A stretch of 64,000 nt of DNA from an uncultured Bacteroidales bacterium. Its GTDB lineage: Bacteria; Bacteroidota; Bacteroidia; Bacteroidales; Bacteroidaceae. Under the pieces are notes generated by a model that saw only the letters and a list, made by a program, of their open reading frames with translations, did not search any database and had not been told where the DNA came from. A program made the position numbers and the translations under genes. Below are positions 1 to 22,002 of the stretch, in pieces. The stretch spans positions 1-64,000 of the forward strand of contig CADCHQ010000008.1 of the NCBI GenBank assembly GCA_902801325.1, written 5' to 3'. Numbering within the stretch: position 1 is the stretch's first letter; each line of letters opens with the position of its first letter.

Positions 1-1
1 C

Positions 2-718
2 AACGTGAACAAGGCGCAGGGCAACGGCATCGCTATCAACCGCGTGCTGAAGGATGCCTATCAGAAGGCGACGGGCACGGACAACATTCCGTTCAAGGCA
101 GCGACGTTCAACCGCGTGTTCTGCAACATCGAACTGTCGAACCTGCACACCGACACCCATGTGGCGAACATCGTGGTGGCTACCAATCAGCAGGGCTTGC
201 AGGTGGCTATCGGTGCGCACTGCCACGCCTGCCGTAATCAGACAATCCTCGGTGCCTCGCACCTCGTGAGCAGTTACGGAGGACGCAAGCAGGTGGACCC
301 GCAGGAGTTCCTGCAAATGGTCTATCAGATGTTGCAGGGCTATCGCTTCGTGGATGACATGGAGGCACTGCGACGAATGCAACAGTATGAGTTGAAGGAC
401 GAGCATGTGCTGATGCTGATGGGCTATCTGCGCTACCTCTATGCGAAGTACAACAGCCGTGACGCTGCTATACGCTCTCAGGTGACGGGCAACTATGCCA
501 TCTACCCGATGGACGCAAGTCAGCTGAACCGCTTCGACCAGACGATTGTGCAAACGGAACGTGCCTTGCAGGGCAGACCGATGACCGTCTATGACATCTA
601 TCAGGGTGCTACGACTATCTACAAGGTGGCTCGGACGGATATGCCGAACATCCTGCCGCAGAACCTGGCGTTTGTGCAGACACTGAATGAGGTGTTCGGG
701 CTTAACATCAATTCATAA
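2..718 (+). CDS. Hypothetical protein, 5' end cut by window edge
   Basis: The reading frame is open to the left edge, so the N-terminus is missing; the GTG at 5 is unlikely to be the true start. The visible 238 residues are soluble, with a motif HCHACRNQTILG near residue 72 and a helical C-terminal half. The general look recalls DUF3871/DUF932-type proteins of Bacteroidales mobile elements, but I cannot confirm that by eye. The stop lies 12 nt before the MutS-domain gene, so the two are probably one operon. Function unknown. Confidence 0.7.
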   Translation, partial: NVNKAQGNGIAINRVLKDAYQKATGTDNIPFKAATFNRVFCNIELSNLHTDTHVANIVVATNQQGLQVAIGAHCHACRNQTILGASHLVSSYGGRKQVDPQEFLQMVYQMLQGYRFVDDMEALRRMQQYELKDEHVLMLMGYLRYLYAKYNSRDAAIRSQVTGNYAIYPMDASQLNRFDQTIVQTERALQGRPMTVYDIYQGATTIYKVARTDMPNILPQNLAFVQTLNEVFGLNINS

Positions 719-730
719 TTCGTAATCACT

Positions 731-1849
731 ATGGCAAAGCAAGAATTAACTCCTATATTGCGTCAGTTCCACGACCTGAAGCAGAAGCACCCCGATGCGG
801 TGCTTCTCTTTCGCTGTGGAGATTTCTACGAGACCTACGAGGACGACGCAAAGACTGTTAGCAAGGAGTTGGGAATCACGCTCACCAAGCGGACGGGCAG
901 CCCTAAAGGTGAGGGCTACATGGCTGGATTCCCTTATCACGCTCTCGACACCTATCTGCCGAAGATTATCCGTGCTGGGCATCGTGTGGCTATCTGCGAC
1001 ATGCTCGAACCACCTAAGAAACTCGTGCGCCGTGGCAGCGACGAGCTGACTACTACCGCCACAAACAACCGAATCAATAACCCTCAAACAACCGAAAACA
1101 ATATGAAACTGAATCTTTCCAACACCAAGTCCGAGAACCAGAACGTGCAGAACGCACGAGTGATGAACCCCACAACGGCTATCGTGCCCGCCACACCCGC
1201 ACAGGACATCGTGGATGCCGACTTCGAGGAAGTGAAGCCCGAACCCGCCGCAGAGGAGAAGCCCAAGAAGAAGGTGACGCTGAAGAAGAAGCAAGCTATC
1301 AGCGAGGCACAGCCGGCACAGGTATCTACTCCCATCCCTACAAGGGAGGGGCAGGGGGAGGGTCTGCTTCCCCAGGTGCAGTTCTCCACCTACACCACGA
1401 AGCGCGGTGACACGGCTCCGCAAATCATCGGTTTCGGCGGTGAGGATGACCCACGCTGGAAGGCGCACAAGGATGCAGGTAACAAGTATGTAAGCGCATC
1501 CTTCCGTAGAGACCTGTCAGGGAATAAGGTGTATGTGCTGTTGTTCGGCACGAAGTATATGAATGTTGCCAAGGCACTGGCTGGAGCCTACAACACCAAC
1601 GATCGCAACGCATGGAAGCGTGCCGAAGATGCCTGCATGGCTATCTATGAGCAGGCACAGCGCGACGGCAAGGCACAGTGGGAGGCTAAGAAGGCCGAGT
1701 GGAAGGCTAAGGCTGACGAGAAGAAGGCCGCCAAGGAACAGGCGAAGAAGTGCTATACGAAGGAGGATGTGGTCGCCATGCTTGCCGATGTGCTGGCAGG
1801 CAAGGATGTGCCCGAGGACATCAAGAAGCTGCTGAACAAGGCTTCGTAA
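731..1849 (+). CDS. MutS domain I (mismatch-recognition) fusion protein
   Basis: Residues 1-105 match the N-terminal mismatch-recognition domain of MutS, including the GDFYETY segment that holds the Phe-x-Glu wedge used to probe mismatched bases, and the downstream [15 protein letters not shown] and [10 protein letters not shown] blocks. The clamp, lever and ATPase domains are absent: at 372 aa this is far shorter than MutS. The middle is low-complexity and Pro/Glu/Lys-rich, and the C-terminal third (about 215-372) is a separate basic alpha-helical region ending in a Lys/Ala/Glu-rich coil. Stand-alone MutS-I fusions occur on Bacteroidota mobile elements; their role is not established. A G/C-rich repeat has inserted in frame in the linker. 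The gene lies about 580 bp upstream of the RT, which makes a nucleic-acid-distortion-binding partner conceivable, but that is inference. Confidence 0.8.
1329..1367. repeat. Bacteroidales-style G/C palindromic short repeat inside a gene
   Basis: Imperfect palindrome built from CTCCC-type and GGGAG-type runs around a central ACAAGG, read in frame as [11 protein letters not shown]. This kind of element is common between Bacteroidales genes. Here it sits in the linker of the MutS-domain protein without breaking the frame, so it looks like a tolerated insertion. Confidence 0.5.
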
Positions 1850-1920
1850 AATTTATAATTTACGATTTAAATTCATAATTTGCAATTAACGCTGCGCTAT
1901 CGGCATGACGGGCTATAAAT

Positions 1921-2412
1921 ATGTCACACAGCAGGATTTTTCAACTGGGTTTAAAGCCTATTAAGAAAGAAGACTATGCAAGCTCGGAGCAATTCTATGA
2001 CAACTCTCATGACTTTGCCGACTATATAGGAGACGAGGTTGAGGGAGCCGAACGCAAGGAGGACATCGGGCGTTTGGCAGACACGTTAAAAGACATTTTC
2101 ACGCTGGATGCGGAAAACGATGCGTTGGTGTATAAGGGGGAAAGCGCTATGTCGGCTTTCAAGGCCGAATGGGCTGCTGGAATAGCCAAGGCTGCATCGG
2201 TCATCAATGGTCGGAACGTGGTTGAATCTCGCCACAGATACGAGGTGGAGAAAGTATGTGACTGTACCCATCTGAACACTGGTTTCCGCTTCAAGATTGA
2301 GGGTTGGAGCGACTATGCCGAAACGGCGGCAGAACTTGTATCATACGTCGCCAGCGAGATGAAGCATGGAGCCAAACTCTATGTTGCAGCCGTCATAGAC
2401 TATCATTGTTGA
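1921..2412 (+). CDS. Hypothetical protein preceding the RT
   Basis: 163 aa, acidic N-terminal half (a run of Asp/Glu near residues 30-50), then a mixed alpha/beta C-terminal half with HLNTGFRFKIEGWSDYAETA near residues 120-139. No membrane segment or signal peptide. I do not recognise a family. It starts 71 nt after the previous gene, behind an AT-rich leader, and ends 19 nt before the RT start on the same strand, so co-transcription with the RT is likely. Its constant place directly upstream makes it a candidate RT accessory protein (inference only). Confidence 0.75.
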   Translation: MSHSRIFQLGLKPIKKEDYASSEQFYDNSHDFADYIGDEVEGAERKEDIGRLADTLKDIFTLDAENDALVYKGESAMSAFKAEWAAGIAKAASVINGRNVVESRHRYEVEKVCDCTHLNTGFRFKIEGWSDYAETAAELVSYVASEMKHGAKLYVAAVIDYHC

Positions 2413-2431
2413 ACAATTAAAACTAAGAACT

Positions 2432-4021
2432 ATGGACAAGATACTATCAATGTTTTTCGAGGCAGGGCGGTGGGAATACGCTATTGCCAAGGGCGTGGGT
2501 AAGGACGTTCCGAAGAACGTGCTATTTCAACTATGCAAGCCGGAGGTACGGCTGAAAATGTACGAGGCCATCCGAACGGGGCAGTACGAGATTGCGCCGC
2601 CACATACGGCGCTTATTCCAAAGGACATGCCAGGCGAGTTCCGCACGGTATATGTGAACGAGGCTGCCGACCGAGTGTTGCTCAGTATTGCCAACGACCT
2701 CCTTTTTGAGTTGATGCCAGACAGGGTGCATCCACGATGTAAGTCATACCTGAAGGGTGTTGGCTGCGGAAGGGTGGTGCAGGAGGTAAGCCTCACTATT
2801 GCTCGGAGCAAAAAGTTAAAAAGTGAAAAACTCGGGTGGAAGAGCGACCTGAGCAAGTATTTTGACTCGGTTCCTATTGAGTTCATCGACCGAGCATTCG
2901 ACATGGTGGAGGAAAGGCATGGACGGAGCGCATTGATTGATGTACTTCGCAAGTATTACCATTCCGACCTCTATTTCACTCCGGAAGGAGACCTGTGCGA
3001 GAAATATCAGTCGCTGAAGCAAGGATGTTCGGTGGCTTCATGGCTGGCCGACGTTATTCTCTATCATATTGACGAACGTCTGGCAAGGTTGGACGGATAT
3101 TATGTCCGTTATTCTGATGATATGCTATTCGTCGGTAATGATGCGGAGGAAGCTATGGTAATCCTTACGGACGAACTTGCTAAAATGAGCATGAAACTCA
3201 ACCCGAAGAAGGTTGAGTGGCTGGATGCAGGCCATTGGTTTAAGTTTCTTGGATTCTCTATTAAGGGGAGAAACATCAGTCTTTCGTCAACTCGAATTAA
3301 GACTTTCCAAAAGGAAATTGAGGCAAGGACCATACGTCAGCGTAGTACGACAGCCCTTAAGGCTATAAATACTGTCAACCGCTATCTCTATCGTGGTGAC
3401 GGTCAGGGACACTCGTGGGCTACTCAGGTGTTGCCTATTGTGAACGTGAGACAGGATATAGACACGCTGAATGCTTTTGTCATGGACTGCCTACGTGCCG
3501 TTCATACGGGTAAGAAGAAACTTGGAGGTCTTGGCTATGACAAGCAAGGCAAGACGGGTTGTATAGTTCGTGGCATGGGCAGGAATGTGACTGCAAACCG
3601 CCGCAAGACGGGTGACGACATCGGAGGCTATGTGTCGCTGGGTTGTATGCAGAACGCCTTGCGGACAAGCAAGGCGGCGTATGACACACTGGTGAGAGGA
3701 CTGAATCGGAGTAACCAGAAGAATACTCAGAATACTCAGAGCGAACAGACCTCTATCGAGGAACTTGAAAGCGCCTATGCCGTATATAAGCATAGCATCC
3801 CGTCGGAAAAGACGATGGGCCGCATTTCTCGCTTCTATGCTCTGCCTGAGTGCGAGTTGAGCAACGACGATATGCTCTATGGCGTTTCGAGAGAGCAAGC
3901 AGAACGAGAACTGGAAAAGGCACTGGCTGCCTTTGCCTACCCCGAAGATGCGGGGTGGTTCTGGCAGAGCGATAGTGACCCCGACCTTGTGGTGCTGCGC
4001 CAGTGGTGTAGTGCTGCATGA
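2432..4021 (+). CDS. Stand-alone reverse transcriptase of unrecognised group
   Basis: 529 aa. All catalytic RT blocks are visible in order: motif 1/2 region TALIPKDMPGEFRTVYVNEA (59-78), motif A SDLSKYFDSV with catalytic Asp139 (138-147), block 4 QGCSVASWLADVIL (197-210), catalytic YSDD (227-230), block 6 MKLNPKKVEWL and FLGF (272-275). So it should be an active RNA-dependent DNA polymerase. Block 4 reads QGCSVASW, not the SQ form of diversity-generating retroelements or the usual SP form of retrons and group II introns. No intron maturase or endonuclease domain is evident. The C-terminal 230 aa contain a Gly/Lys/Arg-rich patch (GKKKLGGLGYDKQGKTG, RGMGRNVTANRRKTG) likely to bind nucleic acid. 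The stop codon abuts the first structured RNA unit, so RT and array are probably one transcript. Confidence 0.92.
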   Translation: MDKILSMFFEAGRWEYAIAKGVGKDVPKNVLFQLCKPEVRLKMYEAIRTGQYEIAPPHTALIPKDMPGEFRTVYVNEAADRVLLSIANDLLFELMPDRVHPRCKSYLKGVGCGRVVQEVSLTIARSKKLKSEKLGWKSDLSKYFDSVPIEFIDRAFDMVEERHGRSALIDVLRKYYHSDLYFTPEGDLCEKYQSLKQGCSVASWLADVILYHIDERLARLDGYYVRYSDDMLFVGNDAEEAMVILTDELAKMSMKLNPKKVEWLDAGHWFKFLGFSIKGRNISLSSTRIKTFQKEIEARTIRQRSTTALKAINTVNRYLYRGDGQGHSWATQVLPIVNVRQDIDTLNAFVMDCLRAVHTGKKKLGGLGYDKQGKTGCIVRGMGRNVTANRRKTGDDIGGYVSLGCMQNALRTSKAAYDTLVRGLNRSNQKNTQNTQSEQTSIEELESAYAVYKHSIPSEKTMGRISRFYALPECELSNDDMLYGVSREQAERELEKALAAFAYPEDAGWFWQSDSDPDLVVLRQWCSAA

Positions 4022-4190
4022 GGACTATTCCCCACCGCACAGCGGGCAGTCTGCTTATGGCAACACCGATTTAATCAGCCGCGTTTTAACCAGAAAGGGC
4101 GCCGTCATTCACTTCCATTGTCAGTTGGAAGTGCAGACGGCGCCGTATCTGGCACACGCTGCTCATATCAAGTCTATAAAGAAGATGTGC
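4022..4190 (+). ncRNA. RT-linked structured RNA, unit 1
   Basis: Begins at the RT stop codon. 5' hairpin CCGC/GCGG (4035-4045); bases GCACA (4037-4041) are complementary to TGTGC (4186-4190), though here that strand overlaps the 5' hairpin so the fold is less clear than in other units. Variable hairpin 4090-4152: CCAGA/TCTGG, then GGCGCCGTC/GACGGCGCC (9 bp), then CACTTCCA/TGGAAGTG (8 bp). Fixed 3' block: ATCAA 4167-4171, five bases, TAAAG 4177-4181. TTTA 4070-4073 can close against TAAA. Strand is assigned from the direction of the flanking genes and shared unit order. Confidence 0.75.
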
Positions 4191-4376
4191 AAGGTTGCAA
4201 GGAGCAGACAAACAAGCCTCGCACAAGGCTATCCCTGCGTGGGGCGGTGTATCTTTAGGTTCCTGCGTTTCAAACGCGGGTTTTCACTGAGCCCTTCTGT
4301 GCTATTTCACAGCCTGGCTCGGTTACAACCCGCACGACGCAGGCACTTATCATCAACCGTATAAAGGCTATGTGCC
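4191..4376 (+). ncRNA. RT-linked structured RNA, unit 2
   Basis: 5' hairpin AGCCT/AGGCT (4215-4230) with loop CGCACA; loop GCACA (4221-4225) pairs with TGTGC (4371-4375). Closing stem CTTTA 4253-4257 with TAAAG 4362-4366. Variable hairpin 4262-4343 has regular internal loops: CCTGCGT/ACGCAGG, CGGGTT/AACCCG, GAGCC/GGCTC, GTG/CAC. Fixed block ATCAA 4352-4356, five bases, TAAAG. The 71 nt from here to the next start codon are A/T-rich leader. Confidence 0.8.
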
Positions 4377-4447
4377 ATGCCGTAAGGCGCAGGGAATAAA
4401 AATAATAAAATAAACAACAAATTTCAAAACTTAAAATCATTACAACT

Positions 4448-5533
4448 ATGACTACCAACAAAAACAACGTGAACAACAACATGAGTAACAACGAGACTAA
4501 GGTAATGTGCCCCGTATGCGGCACGGAGTTCGCTATCGGCGAGCACGAACACAGAGTGAAGAACGCTATCAGCATCGGTAAGGACAGCGGGCTTGGCGAG
4601 GTGTATCTGCCCGTAAGCAAGCGCGGTCAGGCATTGGAATCTGCAGGTATTGACACCACGAAGTACTTTTCCATCAACCTTCCCACGGGTGGCAGTCAGC
4701 TGATGAAGTTGACAGACGAGGGTGTGCCCGTCGCAGTGACGGCTGACGACCCTATCATGCAGCAGATTGTGCAGGGCGGCACTGTGCCTAACCGCAACCT
4801 GTTCCGCCGCTGGGTTATGTCGCAGGTGTTCCACGGGCTGCAGGATCGCGGAGGTTTCTCGGATTGGCTGAAGTGGCACGGCTATAAGTATCAGTGGGAG
4901 ATGCTGGTAGAGGAACTGCGAGTGCAGGCTAAACTCTACGGCAAGGACATGGAGAACTACGAGGCCCGCAACCGCTGGTTCAATCGTGAGTTGTGCGTGA
5001 CAATGGCAAAGGACTATGTGAAGCAGTTGCGCAAGGATGCTTCCGAGCGTCCCACACACAAGTGCAAGGGTGTGCCCTATATCATATTCGGTAACAAAAA
5101 CTACTTCGTCTCGGACATCGAGAAGAAGTTGGTATACCCCGTGGAGTTGCGCATCTCTGCCATCGAGTCATCGAAGAATCCGCAGCAGTTGTACAATGCA
5201 GTCCTTCACTTCTGGCAGAATACGCCCTGTAGCAGTAACTATTACGACCAGTGCGCCGCATGGAAGGATGCCTACAAGGGAATGGGGGCCTATGCCACGA
5301 TGCAGAACCTGCTTCGCTTCCACGGATGCAAGTTCCCCAAGGATAACGACTTCTATACCAGAAATCTGACTGGTCTGCAAATGCTGGAGAACGCCGCTAT
5401 TTCCTATTCCGACGGCGATGGCTGGCGTTTGTTCGGCCTTATGAAGCAGATGCTGGACGAGAACGGAATCAACATCGACGCTAAGATGCGCGAGTGGGCT
5501 AAGGAAAAGAAAGCCAAGAATCTGAAGCGATAA
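4448..5533 (+). CDS. Hypothetical protein with N-terminal CxxC motif, inside the RNA array
   Basis: 361 aa. After an Asn-rich start it has MCPVCGTEF (about residues 20-28), half of a zinc-ribbon-like site. The rest is soluble, mixed alpha/beta, Trp/Tyr-rich in the middle (FSDWLKWHGYKYQWEMLVEEL) and basic at the C-terminus (EWAKEKKAKNLKR). No family recognised and no catalytic signature identified. It splits the RNA array: unit 2 ends 71 nt upstream and unit 3 begins at its stop codon, just as unit 1 begins at the RT stop. That arrangement suggests gene plus RNA are a functional or mobile block, and makes this protein a candidate partner of the RNAs (inference). Confidence 0.85.
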   Translation: MTTNKNNVNNNMSNNETKVMCPVCGTEFAIGEHEHRVKNAISIGKDSGLGEVYLPVSKRGQALESAGIDTTKYFSINLPTGGSQLMKLTDEGVPVAVTADDPIMQQIVQGGTVPNRNLFRRWVMSQVFHGLQDRGGFSDWLKWHGYKYQWEMLVEELRVQAKLYGKDMENYEARNRWFNRELCVTMAKDYVKQLRKDASERPTHKCKGVPYIIFGNKNYFVSDIEKKLVYPVELRISAIESSKNPQQLYNAVLHFWQNTPCSSNYYDQCAAWKDAYKGMGAYATMQNLLRFHGCKFPKDNDFYTRNLTGLQMLENAAISYSDGDGWRLFGLMKQMLDENGINIDAKMREWAKEKKAKNLKR

Positions 5534-5717
5534 GCGTCGCAGACACGAATGGTCGTGCGGCCTATTCGCTGTGAGACGTGCAGACATTTTAGTTGATCAG
5601 GATTTCAACCTGTGAGTTCATCTCGATCGGTCCGACATCCCTATGGTATGTGGACCAGCTCGAGATGACCTGACAGGCCATCCTGATCATCTCATCAACA
5701 CGATACAGACACGCACC
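5534..5717 (+). ncRNA. RT-linked structured RNA, unit 3
   Basis: Starts at the stop of the 361-aa gene. 5' hairpin GGTC/GGCC (5551-5562, one G.U); loop GTGCG (5555-5559) pairs with CGCAC (5712-5716), a compensatory change relative to units 1 and 2. Variable hairpin 5595-5688: GATCAGGAT/ATCCTGATC (9 bp), CCTGT/ACAGG, TCATCTCGA/TCGAGATGA (9 bp), GGTCC/GGACC, ACAT/ATGT. Fixed block ATCAA 5694-5698, five bases, TACAG 5704-5708 in place of TAAAG; the closing stem is not obvious in this unit. Confidence 0.8.
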
Positions 5718-5903
5718 ATGCACGGAGCACAGCGTTGAGAAGAAAGACTGAGCATACAGTTTATTGTACCTGCAAGACGGGCATACTTTAGTGAACAGTT
5801 GATAAGGGAAGGCGGGGCCAGCCGTCGTATCCCTATTGTTATACGACGGCTGGAACCGCCTTCGTATCTAACTGTTGACATCAAGCGAATATAGTCATGT
5901 GCC
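5718..5903 (+). ncRNA. RT-linked structured RNA, unit 4
   Basis: 5' hairpin ACTG/CAGT (5747-5760) with loop AGCATA; GCATA (5752-5756) pairs with TGTGC (5898-5902) including one G.U. CTTTA 5786-5790 faces TATAG 5890-5894 with one mismatch. Variable hairpin 5794-5876: AACAGTT/AACTGTT, AAGGCGG/CCGCCTT, CCAGCCGTCGTAT/ATACGACGGCTGG (13 bp perfect), loop of 10. Fixed block ATCAA 5880-5884 then five bases. Confidence 0.82.
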
Positions 5904-6069
5904 AAGTCCGTGAGCAGGGTAGGGGGAGCGCACCCTATTTAACTATCCGCAAGGCATCCACGCTTTTCAAAGTGCCGGTTCACAATTTTACCTGGATTCT
6001 ACTGGGATATTCCCAGTTTCTCCAGGTAAGTTATACCGGCATCTTATCAACGCAGTAAAGTCATGCGCC
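5904..6069 (+). ncRNA. RT-linked structured RNA, unit 5
   Basis: 5' hairpin AGGG/CCCT (5921-5936); loop GCGCA (5928-5932) pairs with TGCGC (6064-6068). Closing stem CTTT 5963-5966 with AAAG 6057-6060. Variable hairpin 5973-6041: TGCCGGT/ACCGGCA, TTACCTGGA/TCCAGGTAA (9 bp), ACTGGGA/TCCCAGT (7 bp) with a 3-nt loop. Fixed block ATCAA 6046-6050, five bases, TAAAG 6056-6060. Confidence 0.82.
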
Positions 6070-6253
6070 ACGGATGATGAGCGATAGAGAGGATGGCTGC
6101 GCATACAGCCTATTTAGTTTTGCAGAGCGGTATCTTTAAGTGCCATCGCTGGGAATAAGCTCAGTTCAGAAAGGCGGCCATCAATAAGATGGCGGCCTCC
6201 TCTGATTTGAGCTTCTCGTCGATGCCTTTATCAAACAAGTAAAGTATTATGCC
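6070..6253 (+). ncRNA. RT-linked structured RNA, unit 6
   Basis: 5' hairpin GGCTG/CAGCC (6095-6110) with loop CGCATA; GCATA (6101-6105) pairs with TATGC (6248-6252), a compensatory change relative to unit 4. Closing stem CTTTA 6134-6138 with TAAAG 6240-6244. Variable hairpin 6144-6224: CATCG/CGATG, AAGCTCA/TGAGCTT, CAGA/TCTG, then a G/C-rich distal stem (9 of 10 paired) around loop AATAA. Fixed block ATCAA 6230-6234 then five bases. Confidence 0.82.
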
Positions 6254-6288
6254 AGACCGCGAGGCAAACGAAGAAACAAGCCTTTTAT
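6254..6288 (+). other. Truncated seventh array unit (5' part only)
   Basis: Directly after unit 6 the sequence GCGAGGCAAACGAAGAAACA resembles the start of unit 2 (GGAGCAGACAAACAAGCC), but the unit then breaks off into the 109-bp repeat at 6289. It looks like the remnant of a further unit cut by the arrival of that repeat. Confidence 0.4.
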
Positions 6289-6397
6289 CCCGCAGTGGCT
6301 ATGACCTATGCCTTTGATGGCACTGCGGGAACAAATAACGAAGTTTTCATAATTTGAATTTTTGAGTTTCAGGGCCGGCCCGTCGTGATGACGCGCC
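6289..6397. repeat. 109-bp direct repeat, copy 1
   Basis: 105 of 109 positions match the copy at 6893-7001. It opens with a hairpin CCCGCAGTG/CACTGCGGG (6289-6329), continues through an AT-rich tract and ends in a GGGCCGGCCC palindrome and GATGACGCGCC. The two copies flank a single gene (6475-6879). Each copy lies upstream of a gene start, so it may be a regulatory leader, a recombination site or the edge of a gene cassette. Confidence 0.85.
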
Positions 6398-6474
6398 GTT
6401 CCTTTTCCTTATGGAATTTACACAACTATCCCCTATCCAAATGGAAAGTGGGGAAACAATAAAAATTAATTACT

Positions 6475-6879
6475 ATGAAAAAGAAAGAAATTATCCCAGC
6501 ACCGATTGACAATAAGAACCTTATGGAAGATTCCTTTGAAGAAGATATTTTTGAGGATTTTTATGCGGCACCTGACCATTATAGGAATGGCGTGCGACAC
6601 TTGGTGGGGTTTCTTCATCTTCCTGATGATGGGATTGATGGATATGTGAGTGCAAAGTGGAATTTCGGTGATTCCAGTATTACAATTGCACTACTTGCCT
6701 ATCCAAACCAAGAAGATGTAAACCAGATATGCGACGTTATATTCTCCTTTTACATAAAAGTTTTTAAGGAAATGGAATATGCTTGCAATGAAAATTGCTT
6801 TGACGATACGAAATTCTGTGTTGGTTTTGACCATAATGGATATTCCATGAAAGTGAGTTTTTGGTGGGAGGTGAAATAG
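6475..6879 (+). CDS. Hypothetical protein between 109-bp repeats
   Basis: 134 aa, acidic in the first 40 residues, then alternating beta-type and helical segments; no membrane segment. Not recognised. More AT-rich than its neighbours and bracketed by two near-identical 109-bp repeats, which suggests it was gained as a cassette. Start chosen at the ATG after an A-rich leader. Confidence 0.75.
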   Translation: MKKKEIIPAPIDNKNLMEDSFEEDIFEDFYAAPDHYRNGVRHLVGFLHLPDDGIDGYVSAKWNFGDSSITIALLAYPNQEDVNQICDVIFSFYIKVFKEMEYACNENCFDDTKFCVGFDHNGYSMKVSFWWEVK

Positions 6880-6892
6880 TAGTGGACACTCA

Positions 6893-7001
6893 CCCGCAGA
6901 GGCTATGACCCATGCCTTTGATGGCACTGCGGGAACAAATAACGAAGTTTTCATAATTTGAATTTTTGAGTTGCAGGGTCGGCCCGTCGTGATGACGCGC
7001 C
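6893..7001. repeat. 109-bp direct repeat, copy 2
   Basis: Second copy of the repeat at 6289-6397, four substitutions. Its hairpin arm carries one mismatch (CCCGCAGAG against CACTGCGGG), so copy 1 has the intact stem. It begins 14 nt after the flanked gene stops and ends 42 nt before the next start codon. Confidence 0.85.
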
Positions 7002-7043
7002 AGCCCTTTTAAAAGAAAATGATTTACGCTAATATATACGCTT

Positions 7044-7244
7044 ATGACAACAAAAGCTATCAACGAGGCTCTGCAGGCCGGAAAGGTAGTGGTGCTGCGG
7101 AACGCACCACATTTGTGCATTGTTCCGGACTTGTTTGGCGAACTGGTGGTGGTGAGCCGGCTGTTGGAGCCGTTCGACACACGTCTGGCTACCCTTGCCG
7201 ATAAGCGGCAGGCTGTCATCTATGAGAGTAAGAAAAAGCATTAA
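7044..7244 (+). CDS. Small hypothetical protein
   Basis: 66 aa starting MTTKAINEALQAGKVVVLRN. The ATG at 7044 follows repeat copy 2. A helix-strand-helix pattern is likely; no motif recognised. Stop lies 19 nt before the next gene. Confidence 0.6.
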   Translation: MTTKAINEALQAGKVVVLRNAPHLCIVPDLFGELVVVSRLLEPFDTRLATLADKRQAVIYESKKKH

Positions 7245-7263
7245 CACATAAAACTAAAGCCTT

Positions 7264-7800
7264 ATGGAAAAGATTGACAACAAAAAGATTGCCATGTCGC
7301 TATTGCTGCAGTGTGCATGGATGTGGGAACGCTGTACACGTAACCCCAACGAGGGAGAGTTTAGGCTGACGGACGTAGTTCAGGGCCTGACAAGCCGTAA
7401 CCGCACTAATACGAAGCCAGGATATACACTGGTGGATATGGGATTTTGCAAACACTGGGAATACTTCGCCGACGGCATCGACGGGATGAACAACTTCGAC
7501 TATGTGAAGAGAGAAGTGTCGCTGGTGTTCAATGATTTTAACTGTTCCTACAAGTTGACGGATATATTCTCTGTTGCCAAGGCGTTCTGTCAAGCTAATG
7601 CCTGCCAGAGCCTTATGAACAAAACGGTCTTTGGCTATAAGGATGGAGAACGCTATTGCCGATTGCCAGAGGAAATGTCTTCGACGTCCGCAACAAGGAA
7701 AAAGGCGGTTGTGAAGCGGGTTTCACGGCCCAAGGCTATTGTTCCACCGACATTGGCCGACCGACTTCGTGAGGCGCTGCTCCGACAACTGGCAGCATAA
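7264..7800 (+). CDS. Hypothetical protein
   Basis: 178 aa with scattered Cys/Trp in the first 140 residues and a Lys/Arg/Pro-rich tail (about 140-165) followed by a short helix. No family recognised; the basic tail would suit nucleic-acid contact. Part of a run of same-strand small accessory genes with 'ACTATG'-type starts. Confidence 0.75.
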   Translation: MEKIDNKKIAMSLLLQCAWMWERCTRNPNEGEFRLTDVVQGLTSRNRTNTKPGYTLVDMGFCKHWEYFADGIDGMNNFDYVKREVSLVFNDFNCSYKLTDIFSVAKAFCQANACQSLMNKTVFGYKDGERYCRLPEEMSSTSATRKKAVVKRVSRPKAIVPPTLADRLREALLRQLAA

Positions 7801-7845
7801 CATTGATATGACAAAGTTTAACAAAAACCAAGCCCCAAAACGACT

Positions 7846-8391
7846 ATGACACAGACAATGACATTGGCACAGGCCGCACGCCAGATGGAAGAGAGCGGCA
7901 CACAGATTAAGGTCGGGCACTTCGGTGCGTTTGCCGACTTCATGTCTTACTTCGAGGTACACTATAAGCCGCTGCTGGAGGCTATTAGCGGCGGGGCCGC
8001 GCTCGACGATAAGCAACGCCACCTGCTGAACTTCTTCTGCGACGACATGCTGAGCGCGTTCAGCGAGCCGGAGGCGGACGAGCCTGCCGACCCTGCCTAC
8101 ACGATGCCGGCGGACGACCCCGCACAGGATGTCTATGCCGAGTACAGCCCGGATATGCGCAAGGCGGTGGCCTATATCAACGAGCAGTTAGAGCCGGAAG
8201 ACAAGGCTATCATCTGCGCCAAGGTGGATAAGAACTTCAAGCAGCACATGAATCCTGCCTACGGCATCGACGACGGCAAGATTATCGACTTGCTGGAAGA
8301 GTACGGTGAGGACCACGACCTGCCCGAAGGGTGGTGGATGGAAGAGTGCGACATGGACGACATTGTACTACTGATAAACTTCGTGAACTGA
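7846..8391 (+). CDS. Acidic hypothetical protein
   Basis: 181 aa, strongly acidic, with a Glu/Asp/Ala/Pro-rich linker (about 84-105) between two helical parts. The C-terminal part holds EEYGEDHDLPEGWWMEE. Acidity of this kind is seen in phage DNA-mimic and inhibitor proteins, but nothing here proves such a role. Start at the ATG after 'AAAACGACT'. Confidence 0.7.
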   Translation: MTQTMTLAQAARQMEESGTQIKVGHFGAFADFMSYFEVHYKPLLEAISGGAALDDKQRHLLNFFCDDMLSAFSEPEADEPADPAYTMPADDPAQDVYAEYSPDMRKAVAYINEQLEPEDKAIICAKVDKNFKQHMNPAYGIDDGKIIDLLEEYGEDHDLPEGWWMEECDMDDIVLLINFVN

Positions 8392-8422
8392 ACAAGGAAT
8401 GAACTAATAAAACAAATTGACT

Positions 8423-8848
8423 ATGGCAATACGATACAATGGAACAACCATCGGCACACTGACGATATGTCAGGCCAGGAAAGAGAAAAACAGCAACGGC
8501 GAGTACGTCGAAGTGAAGGACGAGAAGGGTCACACGGTATTTAAAAAGTTTCCGATACAGATACGCGATAGCAACTGTATGGCAACTTTCCTGCATGTCT
8601 ACAAGGAAAAAGAGCCGTTAGACCCTAAGAGGCCATGGATACATGTACTGGTTATGTTCTTCATGGATGAGCAGCATCTGAAACGCTGCCTAAAATCGGA
8701 CGGGAAAGAGCAAACTTTTGAATCCATTTTCGGCGGCAAACTGAAGAACATACGGCTGAACGTCTATTATAAGAATATGCTGACGCTGGCCAAGTACATG
8801 GTTCGCGACGGGCTAAAAGTGACCTGCTACTACCAAAAACCAAAATAG
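8423..8848 (+). CDS. Hypothetical protein
   Basis: 141 aa from the ATG at 8423 (MAIRYNGTTIGTLTICQARK); a TTG six bases upstream is in frame but the ATG fits the recurring 'GACTATG' start context. Beta-rich N-terminus, basic overall. Lies 8 nt before the next gene. Not recognised. Confidence 0.72.
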   Translation: MAIRYNGTTIGTLTICQARKEKNSNGEYVEVKDEKGHTVFKKFPIQIRDSNCMATFLHVYKEKEPLDPKRPWIHVLVMFFMDEQHLKRCLKSDGKEQTFESIFGGKLKNIRLNVYYKNMLTLAKYMVRDGLKVTCYYQKPK

Positions 8849-8856
8849 AAGAAACT

Positions 8857-9552
8857 ATGAATGATACAAGAAATATCGTCATTGACGAAAAAAATGAGAA
8901 ACAGCAAGTAATTAACTACCTGACCGACCTGATGGCCACCATACAGAACTACTATTTCAAGTCGCGTATGGAAGGACATCCGCTGTGGGTACATGAACGC
9001 TTTGACAACAGTGCGGCTATCAGTATCGACCTCTACCACTTTGAGGGCGATGGCAAGCCGGTGTGTGATGGGCTTAATCCCTGTACAATTACCTGTGATG
9101 ATGGTTCCCAGATGAAGGGCAATCTTTACTGCATGAGTTATGACCCAGATGATGTTACTCCACTCACGTTTGTTTTTGACGAAGAAACGCTCGGAGATAT
9201 GGACGTTGACCCTGAAGATGTTCCAGAGGATGTGTTAAAGGGTATTACAGAATGGCTGGAGCAGGCTATGCAGCCTACATCGCAGGAGGAACCTGCAACG
9301 CCAAGCGCGAAGGACGTCATCGCTCTATGGAGCGACTGGTGTATGGACTATGCCGACGAAAACCTGTGGCTCGACTACATGGTAAAGCACCCCAAGGGGC
9401 ACTGCAACCGCAAGCACCTGCAAGAGAAGTGGGACAGCTGTTACAACCAGTACGGCAGCGAGGCTGCTATGACGATGTTCTGGCGGCAGCTCGACAACAC
9501 CAACCGCGACATCCTGACGGAGTACGTCACGGAGGTATGGCACAAGGACTGA
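8857..9552 (+). CDS. Hypothetical protein
   Basis: 231 aa, acidic. The C-terminal 80 residues contain a well-ordered helical block with WSDWCMDYADENLWLDYM and WRQLDNTNRDILTEYV. No membrane segment. Not recognised; same operon as the flanking small genes. Confidence 0.72.
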   Translation: MNDTRNIVIDEKNEKQQVINYLTDLMATIQNYYFKSRMEGHPLWVHERFDNSAAISIDLYHFEGDGKPVCDGLNPCTITCDDGSQMKGNLYCMSYDPDDVTPLTFVFDEETLGDMDVDPEDVPEDVLKGITEWLEQAMQPTSQEEPATPSAKDVIALWSDWCMDYADENLWLDYMVKHPKGHCNRKHLQEKWDSCYNQYGSEAAMTMFWRQLDNTNRDILTEYVTEVWHKD

Positions 9553-9587
9553 GAACACGAATTACACGAATTAAACGAATTATCGAG
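9553..9587. repeat. Bacteroidales-type AATTACACGAATTAAACGAATTA tract
   Basis: Short periodic intergenic tract with three related ACGAATTA-type steps, of a kind often seen between Bacteroidales genes. It separates the 231-aa and 69-aa genes. Confidence 0.4.
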
Positions 9588-9593
9588 TGACCT

Positions 9594-9803
9594 ATGACAG
9601 ACAAGAGGTTCTATGTCACCATCGAGGTGACGGCACAACTGAGTGGAGAGCTGGAAAAGAACACCGAGGCGAATAGGCAGGAAATCCAAAACCGACTGCG
9701 CCGATGGTTCTATGACCCCAAGAGTCGTAAGCTGGACTACGACTGCTACATCCACAATGAGAACATCATGAGTATTAACGACGAAAACGGCAAGGAATTA
9801 TGA
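9594..9803 (+). CDS. Small hypothetical protein
   Basis: 69 aa, beginning MTDKRFYVTIEVTAQLSGEL: a likely short beta-hairpin plus helix. Overlaps the next gene by four bases (ATGA), so translation is probably coupled. Not recognised. Confidence 0.65.
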   Translation: MTDKRFYVTIEVTAQLSGELEKNTEANRQEIQNRLRRWFYDPKSRKLDYDCYIHNENIMSINDENGKEL

Positions 9804-10327
9804 AGACGTACAAGGAAATGCAGGAAACGTATCAGACTCTGCGCGACGAGCAGGAACGCCAGTATGAAGCCATGAATGAACTGGCAGAGAAGAGCCGCGA
9901 GGCGGCGCTTCGCTACCAGCGTATCGCTGCCCGCAAGATGGGCGAGGTCCACAAACTGAGACGCAAAGCATGGGGATGCCGCAAGGTAAACTGGACGGAG
10001 GGACTGTTGCTGCCGCTATTGCAGGAGATTGACCGCAGGACGGGGCTGAACTTCAGCGAGAGTCCGCGTCCCACGTTTGGCATCGGTTGCGAGTGCCCTG
10101 TGTTTGCGAAAGACGAGAATGGCAAGGCTATCGCGATGTTGAAGTTCACACCGAGTTTCAGCAGTGACCGCACACTGTACGTCAAGACGGGTGAGCGCGA
10201 CAATCTCTATGCCGAGGGTACGATTGGTGCCATCAACGGGCTTAACGACAAAGAAGTGGAGGTGGAGAGCGTGGAGCAGGTGCTGGATATCCTCTATCGA
10301 AACTACCCAGAACTGAAAATGGCATGA
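9800..10327 (+). CDS. Hypothetical protein with N-terminal coiled coil
   Basis: 175 aa. Residues 1-60 are a charged heptad-like helix; the rest is a compact alpha/beta domain with RPTFGIGCECPVFAKDENGK in the middle. ATGA overlap with the preceding 69-aa gene suggests they act together. Not recognised. Confidence 0.72.
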   Translation: MKTYKEMQETYQTLRDEQERQYEAMNELAEKSREAALRYQRIAARKMGEVHKLRRKAWGCRKVNWTEGLLLPLLQEIDRRTGLNFSESPRPTFGIGCECPVFAKDENGKAIAMLKFTPSFSSDRTLYVKTGERDNLYAEGTIGAINGLNDKEVEVESVEQVLDILYRNYPELKMA

Positions 10328-10393
10328 CCCTGTGAGATTTTGAAAAGATTTTGTATAATTCCTCGCCACAAGGCGACTAAAACAAGAACAACT

Positions 10394-10855
10394 ATGACAA
10401 CAACAATCGACATGAGACCGAAGCCTTTTGTGCTGCCATTCTTCTACACACAACTGGACATTATTGCTAAGAACAGGCTACGCCTATGGCAAGAGCACAG
10501 GCGAACACTTGGTGAGGGAAGTGTGTTCGCATGGCACACCTGGGGCATGGTGCGCAACAGCGATGGTGATATGGAGCCGGACTATGGTTCGGGCCTACAT
10601 ATAACATCCGACATCGCCAAACCCTTGCATGATGCGAAGGACTTTGCAGAGTATCACCAGCGTCATGCAGACGAGCACGGAGGACTGAATGTAGAGGACT
10701 GCTGGGAGTTTGGCAATGCCAAGGACTATGACGGCGGTGATATTCAGCCACGCTCGCTGCTCTATGGTATGCGGCTGAGCTTTAACGACGGAAGCGTCCT
10801 CTTCTTCCGCATGGAATCCAAACTGAAAGAAGAATTAAACGAGAAAGAACTATGA
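10394..10855 (+). CDS. Hypothetical protein
   Basis: 153 aa from the ATG at 10394 (MTTTIDMRPKPFVLPFFYTQ), which follows 'GAACAACT'; an upstream in-frame TTG is a weaker start. Ends with a Glu/Lys-rich tail. Overlaps the next gene by 4 nt (ATGA). Not recognised. Confidence 0.7.
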   Translation: MTTTIDMRPKPFVLPFFYTQLDIIAKNRLRLWQEHRRTLGEGSVFAWHTWGMVRNSDGDMEPDYGSGLHITSDIAKPLHDAKDFAEYHQRHADEHGGLNVEDCWEFGNAKDYDGGDIQPRSLLYGMRLSFNDGSVLFFRMESKLKEELNEKEL

Positions 10856-11073
10856 CACAAGAGCAAGTGACCCGCATCCTCACGGACATCTGCGAGGACA
10901 ACGAGAAGAACGACGGCAGCGTGAAGGTGGAAATCCTGCACGGCGCACAGAGCCACACCGTCATCGACGCACGCAACAACGCCTGGGACATCAACGACGC
11001 TATCCTCATGTGCTGCACCGGCCACGGCACACGATGGGTGGACTGCGAGAGTATTCACTGTATCGGTATCTAA
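10852..11073 (+). CDS. Small hypothetical protein
   Basis: 73 aa, MTQEQVTRILTDICEDNEKN start; helical N-terminus, then beta strands with WDINDAILMCCTGHGTRWVD. ATGA-coupled to the preceding gene. Not recognised. Confidence 0.6.
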   Translation: MTQEQVTRILTDICEDNEKNDGSVKVEILHGAQSHTVIDARNNAWDINDAILMCCTGHGTRWVDCESIHCIGI

Positions 11074-11109
11074 AACTAAGGCCACACAGATTACACAGAT
11101 TTTTAATCA

Positions 11110-11173
11110 GTCCCGCAGGAAGCGCAGATATACGCAGAAATCATTTCTGCTATTTCCGTTATTTCTGCGGGAC
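11110..11173. repeat. Nested inverted repeat between small genes
   Basis: GTCCCGCAG (from 11110) pairs with CTGCGGGAC, and inside it GCAGAAAT pairs with ATTTCTGC. The preceding CACAGATTACACAGATT stretch is another common Bacteroidales intergenic motif. No T-run follows, so a terminator is not indicated. Confidence 0.5.
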
Positions 11174-11190
11174 ATAAAACAAAAACGACT

Positions 11191-11367
11191 ATGAATAAAC
11201 CAACATTTTTCCCTGGTGTCAAAGCAACTTGCGAGGATTGTCAACACTTTGGATGTACTGGCTACCACAGTTACTATTGTTCACATAAAGAGCGTGATGC
11301 GGGACCTTTCGACACCATTTGTGAGTGCTACATCGACCATAGGACAGGAGAGAGAATTAACCAATAA
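11191..11367 (+). CDS. 58-aa Cys-rich micro-protein
   Basis: Begins MNKPTFFPGVKATCEDCQHF, with Cys pairs at CEDC, YYC and CEC: six cysteines in 58 residues, so a small zinc-binding fold is likely. Start context 'AAAACGACTATG' matches its neighbours. Similar 4-Cys micro-proteins recur at 30901, 32558, 34564 and 36425. Confidence 0.6.
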   Translation: MNKPTFFPGVKATCEDCQHFGCTGYHSYYCSHKERDAGPFDTICECYIDHRTGERINQ

Positions 11368-11378
11368 CAAAAACGATT

Positions 11379-11519
11379 ATGGATAACATAAATAGAGAGC
11401 ACCAGGCTGCACAGTATATTATCGAGTATCTGGCAGCACAGGTTGAGAGAGAAAATAGACTATGTTTAACAAAAACCGAAAACCAGCATGAACAAGGAAC
11501 AACGAAAACGCCTGAATGA
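11379..11519 (+). CDS. 46-aa hypothetical micro-protein
   Basis: MDNINREHQAAQYIIEYLAA opening, a single amphipathic helix, hydrophilic tail. It follows 'AAAACGATT' 11 nt after the previous stop and overlaps the next gene by 32 nt. Weak support beyond start context and spacing. Confidence 0.4.
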   Translation: MDNINREHQAAQYIIEYLAAQVERENRLCLTKTENQHEQGTTKTPE

Positions 11520-11721
11520 ACTTATAGAACAAGTTGAAGGCATCGCAACGGAAATACAAGAGATGGCCGAAGAAGAACAGGAGAAGTATGATAACATACC
11601 GGACAATCTGAATGAAAGCGAACGTGCCATGTCTATACAGGAGGCCGCGGATAACCTGCAGGAAGCGTCTGACGACCTTACGAACTGGTGCGACGATACA
11701 CGGTGCAATCTTGAACTGTAA
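11488..11721 (+). CDS. Small coiled-coil protein
   Basis: 77 aa, highly charged: residues 1-60 form a continuous Glu/Lys-rich helix (MNKEQRKRLNELIEQVEGIA onwards), ending in DDLTNWCDDTRCNLEL. Soluble. Role unknown. Confidence 0.65.
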   Translation: MNKEQRKRLNELIEQVEGIATEIQEMAEEEQEKYDNIPDNLNESERAMSIQEAADNLQEASDDLTNWCDDTRCNLEL

Positions 11722-11750
11722 ATGTTTAACTTTTAAAAAGAAGAAGAACT

Positions 11751-11816
11751 ATGGTTGAAAATTGGATTCTTGCAATCATTGTGATCCTTGCCGCAATGAC
11801 AGTCGATGTAAAGTGA
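11751..11816 (+). CDS. 21-aa membrane micro-peptide, copy A
   Basis: Encodes MVENWILAIIVILAAMTVDV plus a final Lys: a single hydrophobic helix. A near-copy lies at 12044-12109, identical in the first ten codons and in ILAA. Start follows 'AAGAAGAACT'. Conservation of peptide and leader between the two copies supports real translation. Confidence 0.6.
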   Translation: MVENWILAIIVILAAMTVDVK

Positions 11817-11822
11817 TGGATT

Positions 11823-11969
11823 ATGGATGGGGTTTACGGACTTACACTTATGTCACCCGATGGTAGGGAGCAACGCACACTCGCATGGCTTCCTACCGAC
11901 GAGGTGCGACAGGACTTCTATGAGAAAGCCCGCAAAAGCGGACTGAAGATTGTTGAAAAACGTAAATAA
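11823..11969 (+). CDS. 48-aa basic hypothetical protein between the micro-peptides
   Basis: Starts MDGVYGLTLMSPDGREQRTL and ends in a Lys/Arg-rich tail. The start is 7 nt after the stop of micro-peptide A. Soluble, basic. Not recognised. Confidence 0.5.
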   Translation: MDGVYGLTLMSPDGREQRTLAWLPTDEVRQDFYEKARKSGLKIVEKRK

Positions 11970-12005
11970 AATCAGAAAAACTGATATTTATTCAATTAAA
12001 ATCTG

Positions 12006-12013
12006 TATATTTG
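12006..12013 (+). promoter_or_regulatory. Bacteroidota -7 box (TATATTTG)
   Basis: Exact TAnnTTTG match 31 nt before micro-peptide B. The expected TTTG at about -33 is not present, only AT-rich sequence, so this is a moderate candidate for a promoter of 12044 and 12164. Confidence 0.4.
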
Positions 12014-12043
12014 CAGCAGCTACAACTTAAAATAATTACAGCT

Positions 12044-12109
12044 ATGGTTGAAAATTGGATTCTTGCAATCATTATGATCCTTGCCGCAATAAAATGCGGA
12101 TGCAAGTAA
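12044..12109 (+). CDS. 21-aa membrane micro-peptide, copy B
   Basis: Encodes MVENWILAIIMILAAIKCGC plus Lys, paralogous to 11751-11816. The hydrophobic helix is kept while the last six residues differ (IKCGCK against MTVDVK). Preceded by its own candidate -7 box. Confidence 0.6.
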   Translation: MVENWILAIIMILAAIKCGCK

Positions 12110-12163
12110 AGGAGTTTTTAATTTTTTAAGACCCCGGACTGATCGGTTAAACAGTTAAACATT

Positions 12164-12919
12164 ATGGCAAACGTATTTTGCATTACTTATGGCGGACGCG
12201 CCAACAACGGGAATACCTACATTCCCTACAAGGCAATAGCACACACAGCAGAAGAGGCTATTGCAGTGATTAATACCTGGAATACTTACGGGAAGCCAGA
12301 CTCTCAGGCCCTGAACCCTGAGTGGCTGCACATTAAGGTAAACGCTATTACAGAGCAGAAAATTCGTGACCTATTTTGCAATGGTTTCGGTACCTATCCC
12401 AGCGGTGAACCACGCACCTACGCAGGGTTCAAAACCACGGGATGCGGTGCATGGGAGATAGGCTTCCATCCTGCTTTGGCTGATACCATTGAGGAGCATG
12501 AGCGCATTTATAAAGAACAGCGAGAACGCGCCAAGGCAGAGCGGATGCGAGTAGCAGAGGAAACTCGTCAGCGCCGTATGGTAGAGTTGATGGCCCAGCG
12601 TAGAGGGTGGTACCATGTGGAGCTGGGACTGGAACTGAGTGTATTTGCCGTTCATGGCAATGATTACATTACCCACAGTACTTTCGAGGGCAATGTTGTT
12701 GCCGACAGCGGCATGGATGCCTATTACAAGGCAGTGAAGCATGTGAAGGAGCATCCCGAAGAACTTATGCACCGGGGCAACATGGCCGTGCTGCAGTTCT
12801 ATGCCCAGCCGGACGGCGGCAACGGACTCTCCTACGACTGCACCTTCCTCGGCGCGAAGACCGACGAGGGCTATAGCGTAGAGAAGTGGGAAGAGTGGAA
12901 ACGGGATGGAAGTATCTGA
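12164..12919 (+). CDS. Hypothetical protein with central charged helix
   Basis: 251 aa: an alpha/beta N-terminal domain (MANVFCITYGGRANNGNTYI), a long Arg/Glu-rich helix (about 108-150), then a second alpha/beta domain. No membrane segment. Not recognised. Confidence 0.75.
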   Translation: MANVFCITYGGRANNGNTYIPYKAIAHTAEEAIAVINTWNTYGKPDSQALNPEWLHIKVNAITEQKIRDLFCNGFGTYPSGEPRTYAGFKTTGCGAWEIGFHPALADTIEEHERIYKEQRERAKAERMRVAEETRQRRMVELMAQRRGWYHVELGLELSVFAVHGNDYITHSTFEGNVVADSGMDAYYKAVKHVKEHPEELMHRGNMAVLQFYAQPDGGNGLSYDCTFLGAKTDEGYSVEKWEEWKRDGSI

Positions 12920-12967
12920 TTGTTTGCCAAGATTACCTAAATAATAACAACCAAAACCAGAACAACA

Positions 12968-13462
12968 ATGAAAAAGCTAATGACAATTGCGCTACTGCTG
13001 TTGGCAGTGATGACAGTTTGCGCACAGGGAACATGGAGCGTGTCACACCGTGAGGCTGACCCGATGAAAGGAGAAGAATCCAAAGATGTGTATATCTACA
13101 AAGACGCAGGAATAGGTTCTGTGGTCGTATGGGACTGGAACAAAGCAGACTTCCGGCTTATCACAGATAAGGGGATGTTTCGGACGCGGGTGTCCTCAGG
13201 TTCTGTTTTTGTTCTCGTTAAGGTTGGTTTTTACGACGAACAAGGAAATATGGAGGAGATGGTGACAGTAAATCTTCTGCCAGAGGACAACCAGATGAAG
13301 AAATATATAGCGACCGCTGACTACTACATGTTTGGACGGAAGGACATCCGTAAAATCATTAAGCATCTAAAGTCGGGCAAAGGTTATGTGCGCTTTTTGG
13401 TGGAACGATTTAATGATACGGAATTTGACTTGAAGGTAACGCCATACAACAATAATATATAA
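12968..13462 (+). CDS. Exported hypothetical protein
   Basis: 164 aa with a clear signal peptide (MKKLMTIALLLLAVMTVCAQ, cleavage likely after Cys-Ala-Gln or at VCA). The remainder is beta-rich with a basic C-terminal helix region. Signal Cys is not in a lipobox position that I can call confidently. Last gene of this operon; a terminator follows. Secreted or periplasmic phage proteins of this size may alter the host envelope, but nothing here is specific. Confidence 0.75.
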   Translation: MKKLMTIALLLLAVMTVCAQGTWSVSHREADPMKGEESKDVYIYKDAGIGSVVVWDWNKADFRLITDKGMFRTRVSSGSVFVLVKVGFYDEQGNMEEMVTVNLLPEDNQMKKYIATADYYMFGRKDIRKIIKHLKSGKGYVRFLVERFNDTEFDLKVTPYNNNI

Positions 13463-13526
13463 CATGCGCGTGCGCATGTATGGATGAACTCTCGTTGTTG
13501 CTAACGATAGTGATTTTGAGTTTTGA

Positions 13527-13564: not shown

Positions 13565-13574
13565 TAGAATAAGA

Positions 13575-21998: not shown

Positions 21999-22002
21999 GA
22001 AT

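What the first reader, a model, noticed from the sequence alone, without database searches (positions are those of the whole stretch)
2432..6253. Stand-alone RT linked to a tandem array of six structured RNAs
Seen: an intact RT (YSDD, catalytic Asp in SDLSKYFD) is followed at its stop codon by units of 169 and 186 nt, then a 361-aa gene, then four more units (184, 186, 166, 184 nt) beginning at that gene's stop codon. Each unit has the same order of elements although primary sequence is weakly conserved. Known: retrons, DGRs and group II introns pair an RT with one RNA or template, not an array of six. Inference: a new RT-RNA system in which the RNAs are templates, cofactors or effectors.
Basis: partly seen in the sequence, partly recalled or inferred. 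Interest (0 to 1): 0.95.

Follow-up and report, generated by a model that had tools for sequence, protein, structure and literature searches.

The report
Reverse transcriptase with many-RNA array
A reverse transcriptase gene that also occurs on many viral contigs sits beside a row of six different hairpin units, each predicted to be a separate RNA that the enzyme would likely bind and copy into DNA, whereas the related bacterial systems in the papers read here use one RNA.

Summary
The RT (2432-4021) is a UG27 reverse transcriptase (PADLOC, E 7e-213) with an RTas346 domain; the 361-aa gene is its catalogued partner RTas337. A covariance model finds exactly the six units in 64 kb. Of 79 UG27 loci with at least 1.5 kb after the RT, 75 have two or more units and 66 four or more, against 2 and 0 on the other strand. 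The RNA motif alone, scanned over viral contigs, returned 19: 15 carry the RT, 4 match only a fragment. In most units a 5' hairpin loop pairs with a fixed site in the tail, a covarying pseudoknot that frames a long hairpin, H2. H2 differs between all units of an array and, where relatives are close enough to compare, is conserved. 'Stand-alone' is wrong; among named DRT profiles the nearest characterised are DRT10 and DRT9, which copy one ncRNA, though group II intron RTs score about as well in sequence and fold. An array of different ncRNAs is the new part. Transcription, RT binding and cDNA are untested. One divergent UG27-like RT (G061) shows no array.

The parts
2432..4021 (+). UG27 reverse transcriptase (529 aa); catalytic D139 and YSDD (227-230)
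   Evidence: PADLOC RT_UG27 E 7e-213; Pfam RVT_1; conserved motifs
3713..4012 (+). RTas346 domain fused to the RT C-terminus (a separate small ORF in most of the other loci)
   Evidence: PADLOC RTas346 E 6e-21, residues 428-527; separate ORF in BS-TP1 E 2e-57; within 200 bp in line after the RT core in 12 of 79 loci
4030..4195 (+). RNA unit 1 (pseudoknot not detected)
   Evidence: model R1 E 3.6e-7
4214..4380 (+). RNA unit 2
   Evidence: model R1 E 8.6e-6; 5' loop CGCACA with tail TGTGC
4448..5533 (+). RTas337 (361 aa), CPxCG near the N-terminus, mostly helical model, no known fold found
   Evidence: PADLOC RTas337 E 4e-109; a relative in 79 of 79 loci; model pLDDT 74
5550..5721 (+). RNA unit 3
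   Evidence: model R1 E 9.2e-6; pseudoknot
5745..5907 (+). RNA unit 4; its hairpin type recurs in 12 loci
   Evidence: model R1 E 2e-10 (this unit is in the model's alignment); cluster 0; pseudoknot
5921..6073 (+). RNA unit 5; its hairpin type recurs in 7 loci
   Evidence: model R1 E 1.9e-5; cluster 2; pseudoknot
6094..6257 (+). RNA unit 6
   Evidence: model R1 E 1.1e-11 (this unit is in the model's alignment); pseudoknot
6095..6110 (+). 5' hairpin H1 of unit 6 (stem GGCTG/CAGCC, loop CGCATA)
   Evidence: sequence
6230..6254 (+). 3' motif of unit 6 (ATCRA-N5-TANAG-N3-N5-CA); 6248-6252 pairs with loop 6101-6105
   Evidence: sequence; covariation

Best explanation
Six units of one predicted structured-RNA family, each with its own long hairpin and most with a covarying pseudoknot frame, lie beside a UG27 reverse transcriptase, and each is likely transcribed, bound by that enzyme through the shared frame and copied into its own hairpin-forming cDNA. 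In detail: the common frame (5' hairpin H1 whose loop pairs with the 3' tail; a linker ending in TTTAA or the like; ATCRA and TANAG after the long hairpin H2) is shown by sequence and covariation, and is inferred to be the RT-binding scaffold, as the ncRNA is in DRT9 and DRT10. H2 differs in every unit of an array and is conserved where close relatives exist; it is inferred to be the variable, functional part, most likely the template. One RT would then make a fixed set of about six different DNA products instead of one. RTas346 and RTas337, nearly always alongside, would be cofactor or effector. As the loci found lie mostly on viral contigs (which is also where most searching was done), the set likely serves a phage against competing phages or host defences; this last step is the least certain.
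For: RT-array linkage: 75 of 79 loci with two or more units, 66 with four or more, against 2 and 0 on the reverse strand; RNA-first scan, 15 of 19 contigs with the RT and the other 4 only fragments; of 295 genomes of the same order only 2 hold the RNA at E 0.001 (strict filters), both just downstream of a strong UG27 RT; 78 model hits in 24 loci that gave no sequence to the model, all on the + strand, in 18 of the 24; two of these (L061, L068) are near-copies of loci that did. Structure: H1 chosen blind to the tail pairs 5 of 5 with it in 77 of 145 units, shuffled mean 22.3, maximum 36 in 1000 shuffles, 27 different 5-mers. H2: no two units of one locus have similar H2; 62 of 219 H2 clusters hold two or more units, some better conserved than the RT gene (rows sorted for this). 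RT: best named DRT profiles after UG27 are UG26, UG17 (= DRT10), Drt9, UG4; top fold match the DRT9 RT-ncRNA complex, tied with a group II intron RT. Passages and one section of PMC12632851 and passages of PMC13174585: the Class 2 UG RTs studied use a cis-encoded ncRNA as template.
Against: No transcription, binding or cDNA data. The repeat pattern that marks the template in DRT10 (A-B-A') is not enriched in the 3' segment or the H1-H2 linker. Rarity of G-U pairs in H2 would fit a DNA hairpin, but H1 shows the same pattern of single-base changes, so this does not tell RNA from cDNA. By sequence, group II intron RTs are the best match in NCBIfam (78 bits, below cut-off) and in the PDB, so the Class 2 analogy is not unique. 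157 of 219 H2 clusters are single units, so conservation is shown for only part of them; between distant arrays identity falls to about 40-56%. RTas337 has no recognised fold or activity. A divergent UG27-like RT (G061, E 4.6e-125) has no detectable array in 12 kb, and L040, L093, L100 and L114 show fewer than two units.
Confidence: 0.5

Rival explanations
1. The units are RNA cofactors or RNA effectors, not templates: the RT binds them, but H2 acts as RNA (for example as a decoy or antisense hairpin) and the RT copies something else or makes untemplated DNA.
For: The apical part of the commonest H2 type is conserved as sequence; no template signature was found; Class 1 UG RTs make untemplated DNA (passages of PMC13174585).
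Against: Nearest characterised DRT profiles are Class 2. G-U pairs are rare in H2 (3.7% of internal pairs against 15.7% in folded shuffles), though this did not discriminate against H1. For the arrays tried as queries (window, L059, L063) no H2 match was found in other phages except other UG27 phages and one E 0.3 hit, and for window units 3-6 none in the own genome beyond short chance matches.
Confidence: 0.25
2. H2 inverted repeats work as DNA sites of the element itself (replication, packaging, recombination or transcription control), and the RT linkage is only genomic context.
For: H2 arms are nearly strictly Watson-Crick complementary.
Against: One-strand orientation in nearly all hits (454 to 15; 78 to 0), the pseudoknot over roughly 100-150 nt, and the link to this RT are not expected of DNA sites.
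Confidence: 0.12
3. A telomerase-like system as in DRT10, with the template in the single strand after H2 (ATCRA-N5-TANAG) and H2 as the template boundary.
For: [quoted passage not shown] here the conserved single strand lies just after H2.
Against: A-B-A' repeats of 3 or 4 letters not enriched (k=3: 29 of 178, permuted mean 26.3; k=2 exceeded one of two controls, 160 against 148.3); the segment is conserved, unlike the free template of DRT10.
Confidence: 0.1
4. Retro-proliferation: the RT copies units back into the array, as mobile cassettes.
For: Tandem layout and an RT.
Against: No two units of one locus are similar in H2 at 55 nt or more and E 1e-4; in the closest pair compared (L054/L059) all eight units are orthologous.
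Confidence: 0.03

Closest known systems
UG27 RT group with RTas346 and RTas337 (PADLOC-DB 2.0)
   Same: RT, RTas346 and RTas337 all match their profiles strongly
   Different: PADLOC holds protein models; the RNA array matches no Rfam family
DRT9 and DRT10 (UG17), Class 2 UG reverse transcriptases
   Same: RT relatedness by profile and fold; cis-encoded structured ncRNA of similar size (188 nt in DRT9, passage of PMC12489045; 137 nt in DRT10, passage of PMC12632851)
   Different: One ncRNA per system in the passages read, a median of six different ones here; no conserved U run above three, no A-B-A' signal; RTas346/RTas337 instead of the SLATT protein of DRT10
Retrons
   Same: An RT beside an RNA with a long variable hairpin (retron anatomy recalled, from no call)
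   Different: RT is a UG27 RT (best retron profile 36 bits against 705); array of units; pseudoknot frame

Membership tests
UG27 (PADLOC) | RT_UG27 profile | tested here: met
   E 7e-213, profile positions 2-419 of 420
UG27 (PADLOC) | associated RTas337 and RTas346 | tested here: met
   E 4e-109 and 6e-21; relatives in 79 and 77 of 79 loci
Class 2 UG/DRT reverse transcriptases | RT belongs to the Class 2 branch | tested here: inconclusive
   After UG27: UG26, UG17/DRT10, Drt9, UG4, then Drt3a and Drt2 among named DRT profiles (class of UG26 and UG4 not checked); but group II intron RTs score about as well; no tree was built
Class 2 UG/DRT reverse transcriptases | conserved ncRNA encoded in cis | tested here: met
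   conserved covarying structure beside the RT; transcription not shown
Class 2 UG/DRT reverse transcriptases | ncRNA-templated cDNA | not testable with these tools
   needs cDNA sequencing
Class 2 UG/DRT reverse transcriptases | antiphage activity | not testable with these tools
   needs infection assays
DRT10 | A-B-A' repeat in the template loop | tested here: not met
   3' segment and linker; other parts of the unit not tested
DRT9 | conserved poly-U template | tested here: not met
   no conserved U run above three in 36 aligned units (read from the consensus)
Retron | retron RT | tested here: not met
   best retron profile RT_Ec107-like 36 bits against 705 bits for UG27
Retron | msr-msd RNA with branching G, msDNA | not testable with these tools
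   feature recalled; needs msDNA analysis
Diversity-generating retroelement | template/variable repeat pair with A-directed differences | tested here: inconclusive
   two direct-repeat families of 40 nt or more in window 1-14000, neither examined for A-directed differences; rest of the contig not searched
Group II intron | intron RNA (domains V/VI) | tested here: not met
   no Rfam family at gathering score in the window

The most novel reading that the evidence does not exclude
A multiplexed reverse transcriptase: one phage-borne enzyme programmed by a heritable library of about six to ten structured RNA templates in a shared pseudoknot frame, each written out as a different hairpin DNA aimed at a different target, so that the phage carries a panel of DNA effectors.
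Probability: 0.35. Interest if true: 0.95.

Novelty: new variant of a known kind. Interest (0 to 1): 0.82.

Why it matters
The UG reverse transcriptase systems in the passages I read have at most one ncRNA each. A conserved array of different ncRNAs per RT, present on many viral contigs, would mean that one RT can be programmed many times over. It offers a compact, testable question: which DNA, if any, does each unit specify? Bacteroides phage BS-TP1, deposited with a named host strain, carries eight units, so the test looks practical. The pseudoknot frame also gives a ready model for finding more such arrays.

Tried and rejected

Selection to keep in mind. The 36 units of alignment A7 were taken from 98 that already showed the pseudoknot, so one search is biased upward; one search is the unbiased test, on the 145 of 219 cluster representatives that had an intact TANAG and a suitable hairpin. 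The 79 loci include near-duplicates (for example L060/L061, L067/L068), and 77 of them come from viral contigs or the phage collection, so a phage bias is built in. 92 viral loci were found and the best 80 kept; five truncated loci were dropped before the 79-count. The RT profile also matched 42 of 200 relatives' genomes at E 0.001, but only G000, G145 and G061 better than 1e-100; the rest (best 8e-36) I took for other RTs. Over 52 RT-RTas346 gaps the longest ORF was 94 aa in the median against 73 in shuffles, and one gap holds a 383-aa ORF, so not every gap is purely noncoding.
Full report
What is there. Window 2432-4021 encodes a 529-aa reverse transcriptase that matches PADLOC's RT_UG27 (E 7e-213) and, at residues 428-527, RTas346 (E 6e-21); the 361-aa gene at 4448-5533 is RTas337 (E 4e-109). 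Pfam sees only RVT_1 in the RT and nothing in RTas337. So the proteins belong to a catalogued group, and 'stand-alone' is not right. Between and after them lie two and four units. Rfam knows none of this.

The units are real and widespread. Reading the six units by eye gave a 3' motif, ATCRA-N5/6-TANAG-N3-N5-CA. Related units were then seen in Bacteroides phage BS-TP1, in a 1.35-kb stretch without annotated genes right after its UG27 RT, and in many IMG/VR contigs. A scan with a motif matrix plus hairpin energy over 84 loci gave 454 forward and 15 reverse hits; at a stricter score 366 and 6, and with the pseudoknot required 243 and 1. Of 79 loci with at least 1.5 kb after the RT, 78 have one or more, 75 two or more, 66 four or more and 44 six or more units; the reverse strand gives 13, 2, 0 and 0; the median is six and the maximum ten. 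Relatives of RTas337 are in 79 and of RTas346 in 77 of 79. Of the 366 strict hits 345 lie between the RT and RTas337 (255) or within 1.6 kb after RTas337 (90), 12 upstream of the RT and 9 elsewhere. Median pitch is 171 nt.

The link is tight in both directions. Searching the viral contigs with the RNA motif alone returned 19 stretches. Fifteen are contigs already listed for UG27 RT. The other four match the covariance model only over 33-47 nt, that is, only the motif itself, and no RT was found in the fetched stretches. In 295 genomes of the same order (unnamed; scored with strict filters) the model found two, this genome and G145, and in both the units lie just downstream of a strong UG27 RT. 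On 24 loci that gave no sequence to the model it made 78 matches, all on the + strand, in 18 loci; L061 and L068 are near-copies of loci in the model, and L095, L097, L101, L106, L112 and L113 gave none. Exceptions: G061 holds a UG27-like RT (E 4.6e-125) with weak RTas337 matches (E 3e-11 and 3e-9) and no unit in 12 kb; L040 shows no unit and L093, L100 and L114 one each.

The fold is supported by covariation. In most units a 5' hairpin, H1, has a 6-nt loop whose last five bases pair with five bases at a fixed place in the tail: 214 of 347 units by a permissive search, with the one-plus-five layout in 198 of those. Testing 117 units gave 83 with such pairing, shuffled tails 39.6 on average and 53 at most. 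With H1 picked without looking at the tail, 77 of 145 pair fully, against 22.3 on average and 36 at most in 1000 shuffles, with 27 different 5-mers. On an alignment of 36 units, chosen for the pseudoknot and therefore biased, 93% of cells pair, 107 cells change on both sides (shuffled mean 33), and sliding the partners drops pairing to 18-45%. In the window five of six units show it. Between H1 and H2 runs a linker, in window-type loci resembling GCAAGGCGG-N5-TTTAA. H2 measured 60-109 nt in 106 of 117 units, within a 110-nt limit of the search.

What H2 tells. 347 distinct units fall into 219 clusters by H2: 62 with two or more units, 157 single. No two units of one locus have similar H2 (55 nt or more, E 1e-4). 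In the BS-TP1 group (L041, L054, L059, L062, L109) arrays are 74-89% identical where the RT genes are 76-92%; among more distant pairs array identity is about 40-56% in most, near what alignment of unrelated sequence gives. In the closest pair compared, L054/L059, all eight units match one to one; in L080/L058 hardly any do. Some inner H2 parts are better conserved than the RT: window unit 4 against L038, H2 0.95 with RT 0.72 (from a list sorted for this). In the commonest type (12 loci) the apical GTATCCCTANNGTNATAC is largely kept while the stem around it changes in a paired way. Searched on its own, that type was found exactly only in this system. So a unit looks like a fixed, inherited specificity and not like a newly acquired or freshly duplicated one. 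H2 has few G-U pairs (3.7% of internal pairs, against 15.7% in folded shuffles), as would suit a hairpin that must also work as DNA; but in the orthologue comparison H1 behaves like H2 (GU 23 and AC 39 against GU 75 and AC 97), so this is not evidence for cDNA.

How it most likely works. Among named DRT profiles the nearest after UG27 are UG26, UG17 (now DRT10), Drt9 and UG4. The top Foldseek match of the RT model is the DRT9 RT-ncRNA complex (E 3.1e-13), in effect tied with a group II intron RT (3.8e-13), and by sequence group II intron RTs lead in NCBIfam and the PDB. From passages and one section of PMC12632851 and passages of PMC13174585 and PMC12489045: the Class 2 UG RTs studied bind a cis-encoded ncRNA that serves as template, 188 nt in DRT9 and 137 nt in DRT10. 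By this analogy the common frame is the RT-binding scaffold and H2 the variable template; both steps are inferred. The DRT10-type repeat signature was sought in two places and not found. RTas337 has a CPxCG near its N-terminus, a mostly helical model and no recognised fold; I cannot say what it does.

Verdict. The new element is an array of several different ncRNAs, some individually conserved, served by one RT. I file it as a new variant of the UG RT plus ncRNA kind; whether it is a multiplexed template system is the open and directly testable question.

Noticed in passing
window 6289-6406 and 6893-7010: A 118-nt direct repeat (94% identical) flanks the 134-aa gene just after the array; it contains an inverted repeat (CCCGCAGTG...CACTGCGGG) and may be another structured or regulatory element.
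   Followed up: no
window 731-1849: A 372-aa protein starts with MutS domain I only (Pfam PF01624, E 1.5e-30; phrog_8439); the rest had no match.
   Followed up: no
window 20322-26844: Cytosine-5 DNA methylase, N6/N4 methylase, an unmatched protein and a large ResIII/helicase-type protein in a row; no terminase of phrog_2 was found on this contig, so its phage nature is not shown.
   Followed up: partly
L112 and L113: Divergent UG27 loci with a shorter unit pitch of about 125-130 nt, mostly after RTas337; the covariance model did not reach them.
   Followed up: partly
L041 7995-9257: The BS-TP1 record names the UG27 RT 'tail protein', with the reverse transcriptase match only in a note.
   Followed up: no
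window 11736-11820 and 12029-12113: An 85-nt direct repeat (80%) that seems to encode a short hydrophobic peptide twice.
   Followed up: no
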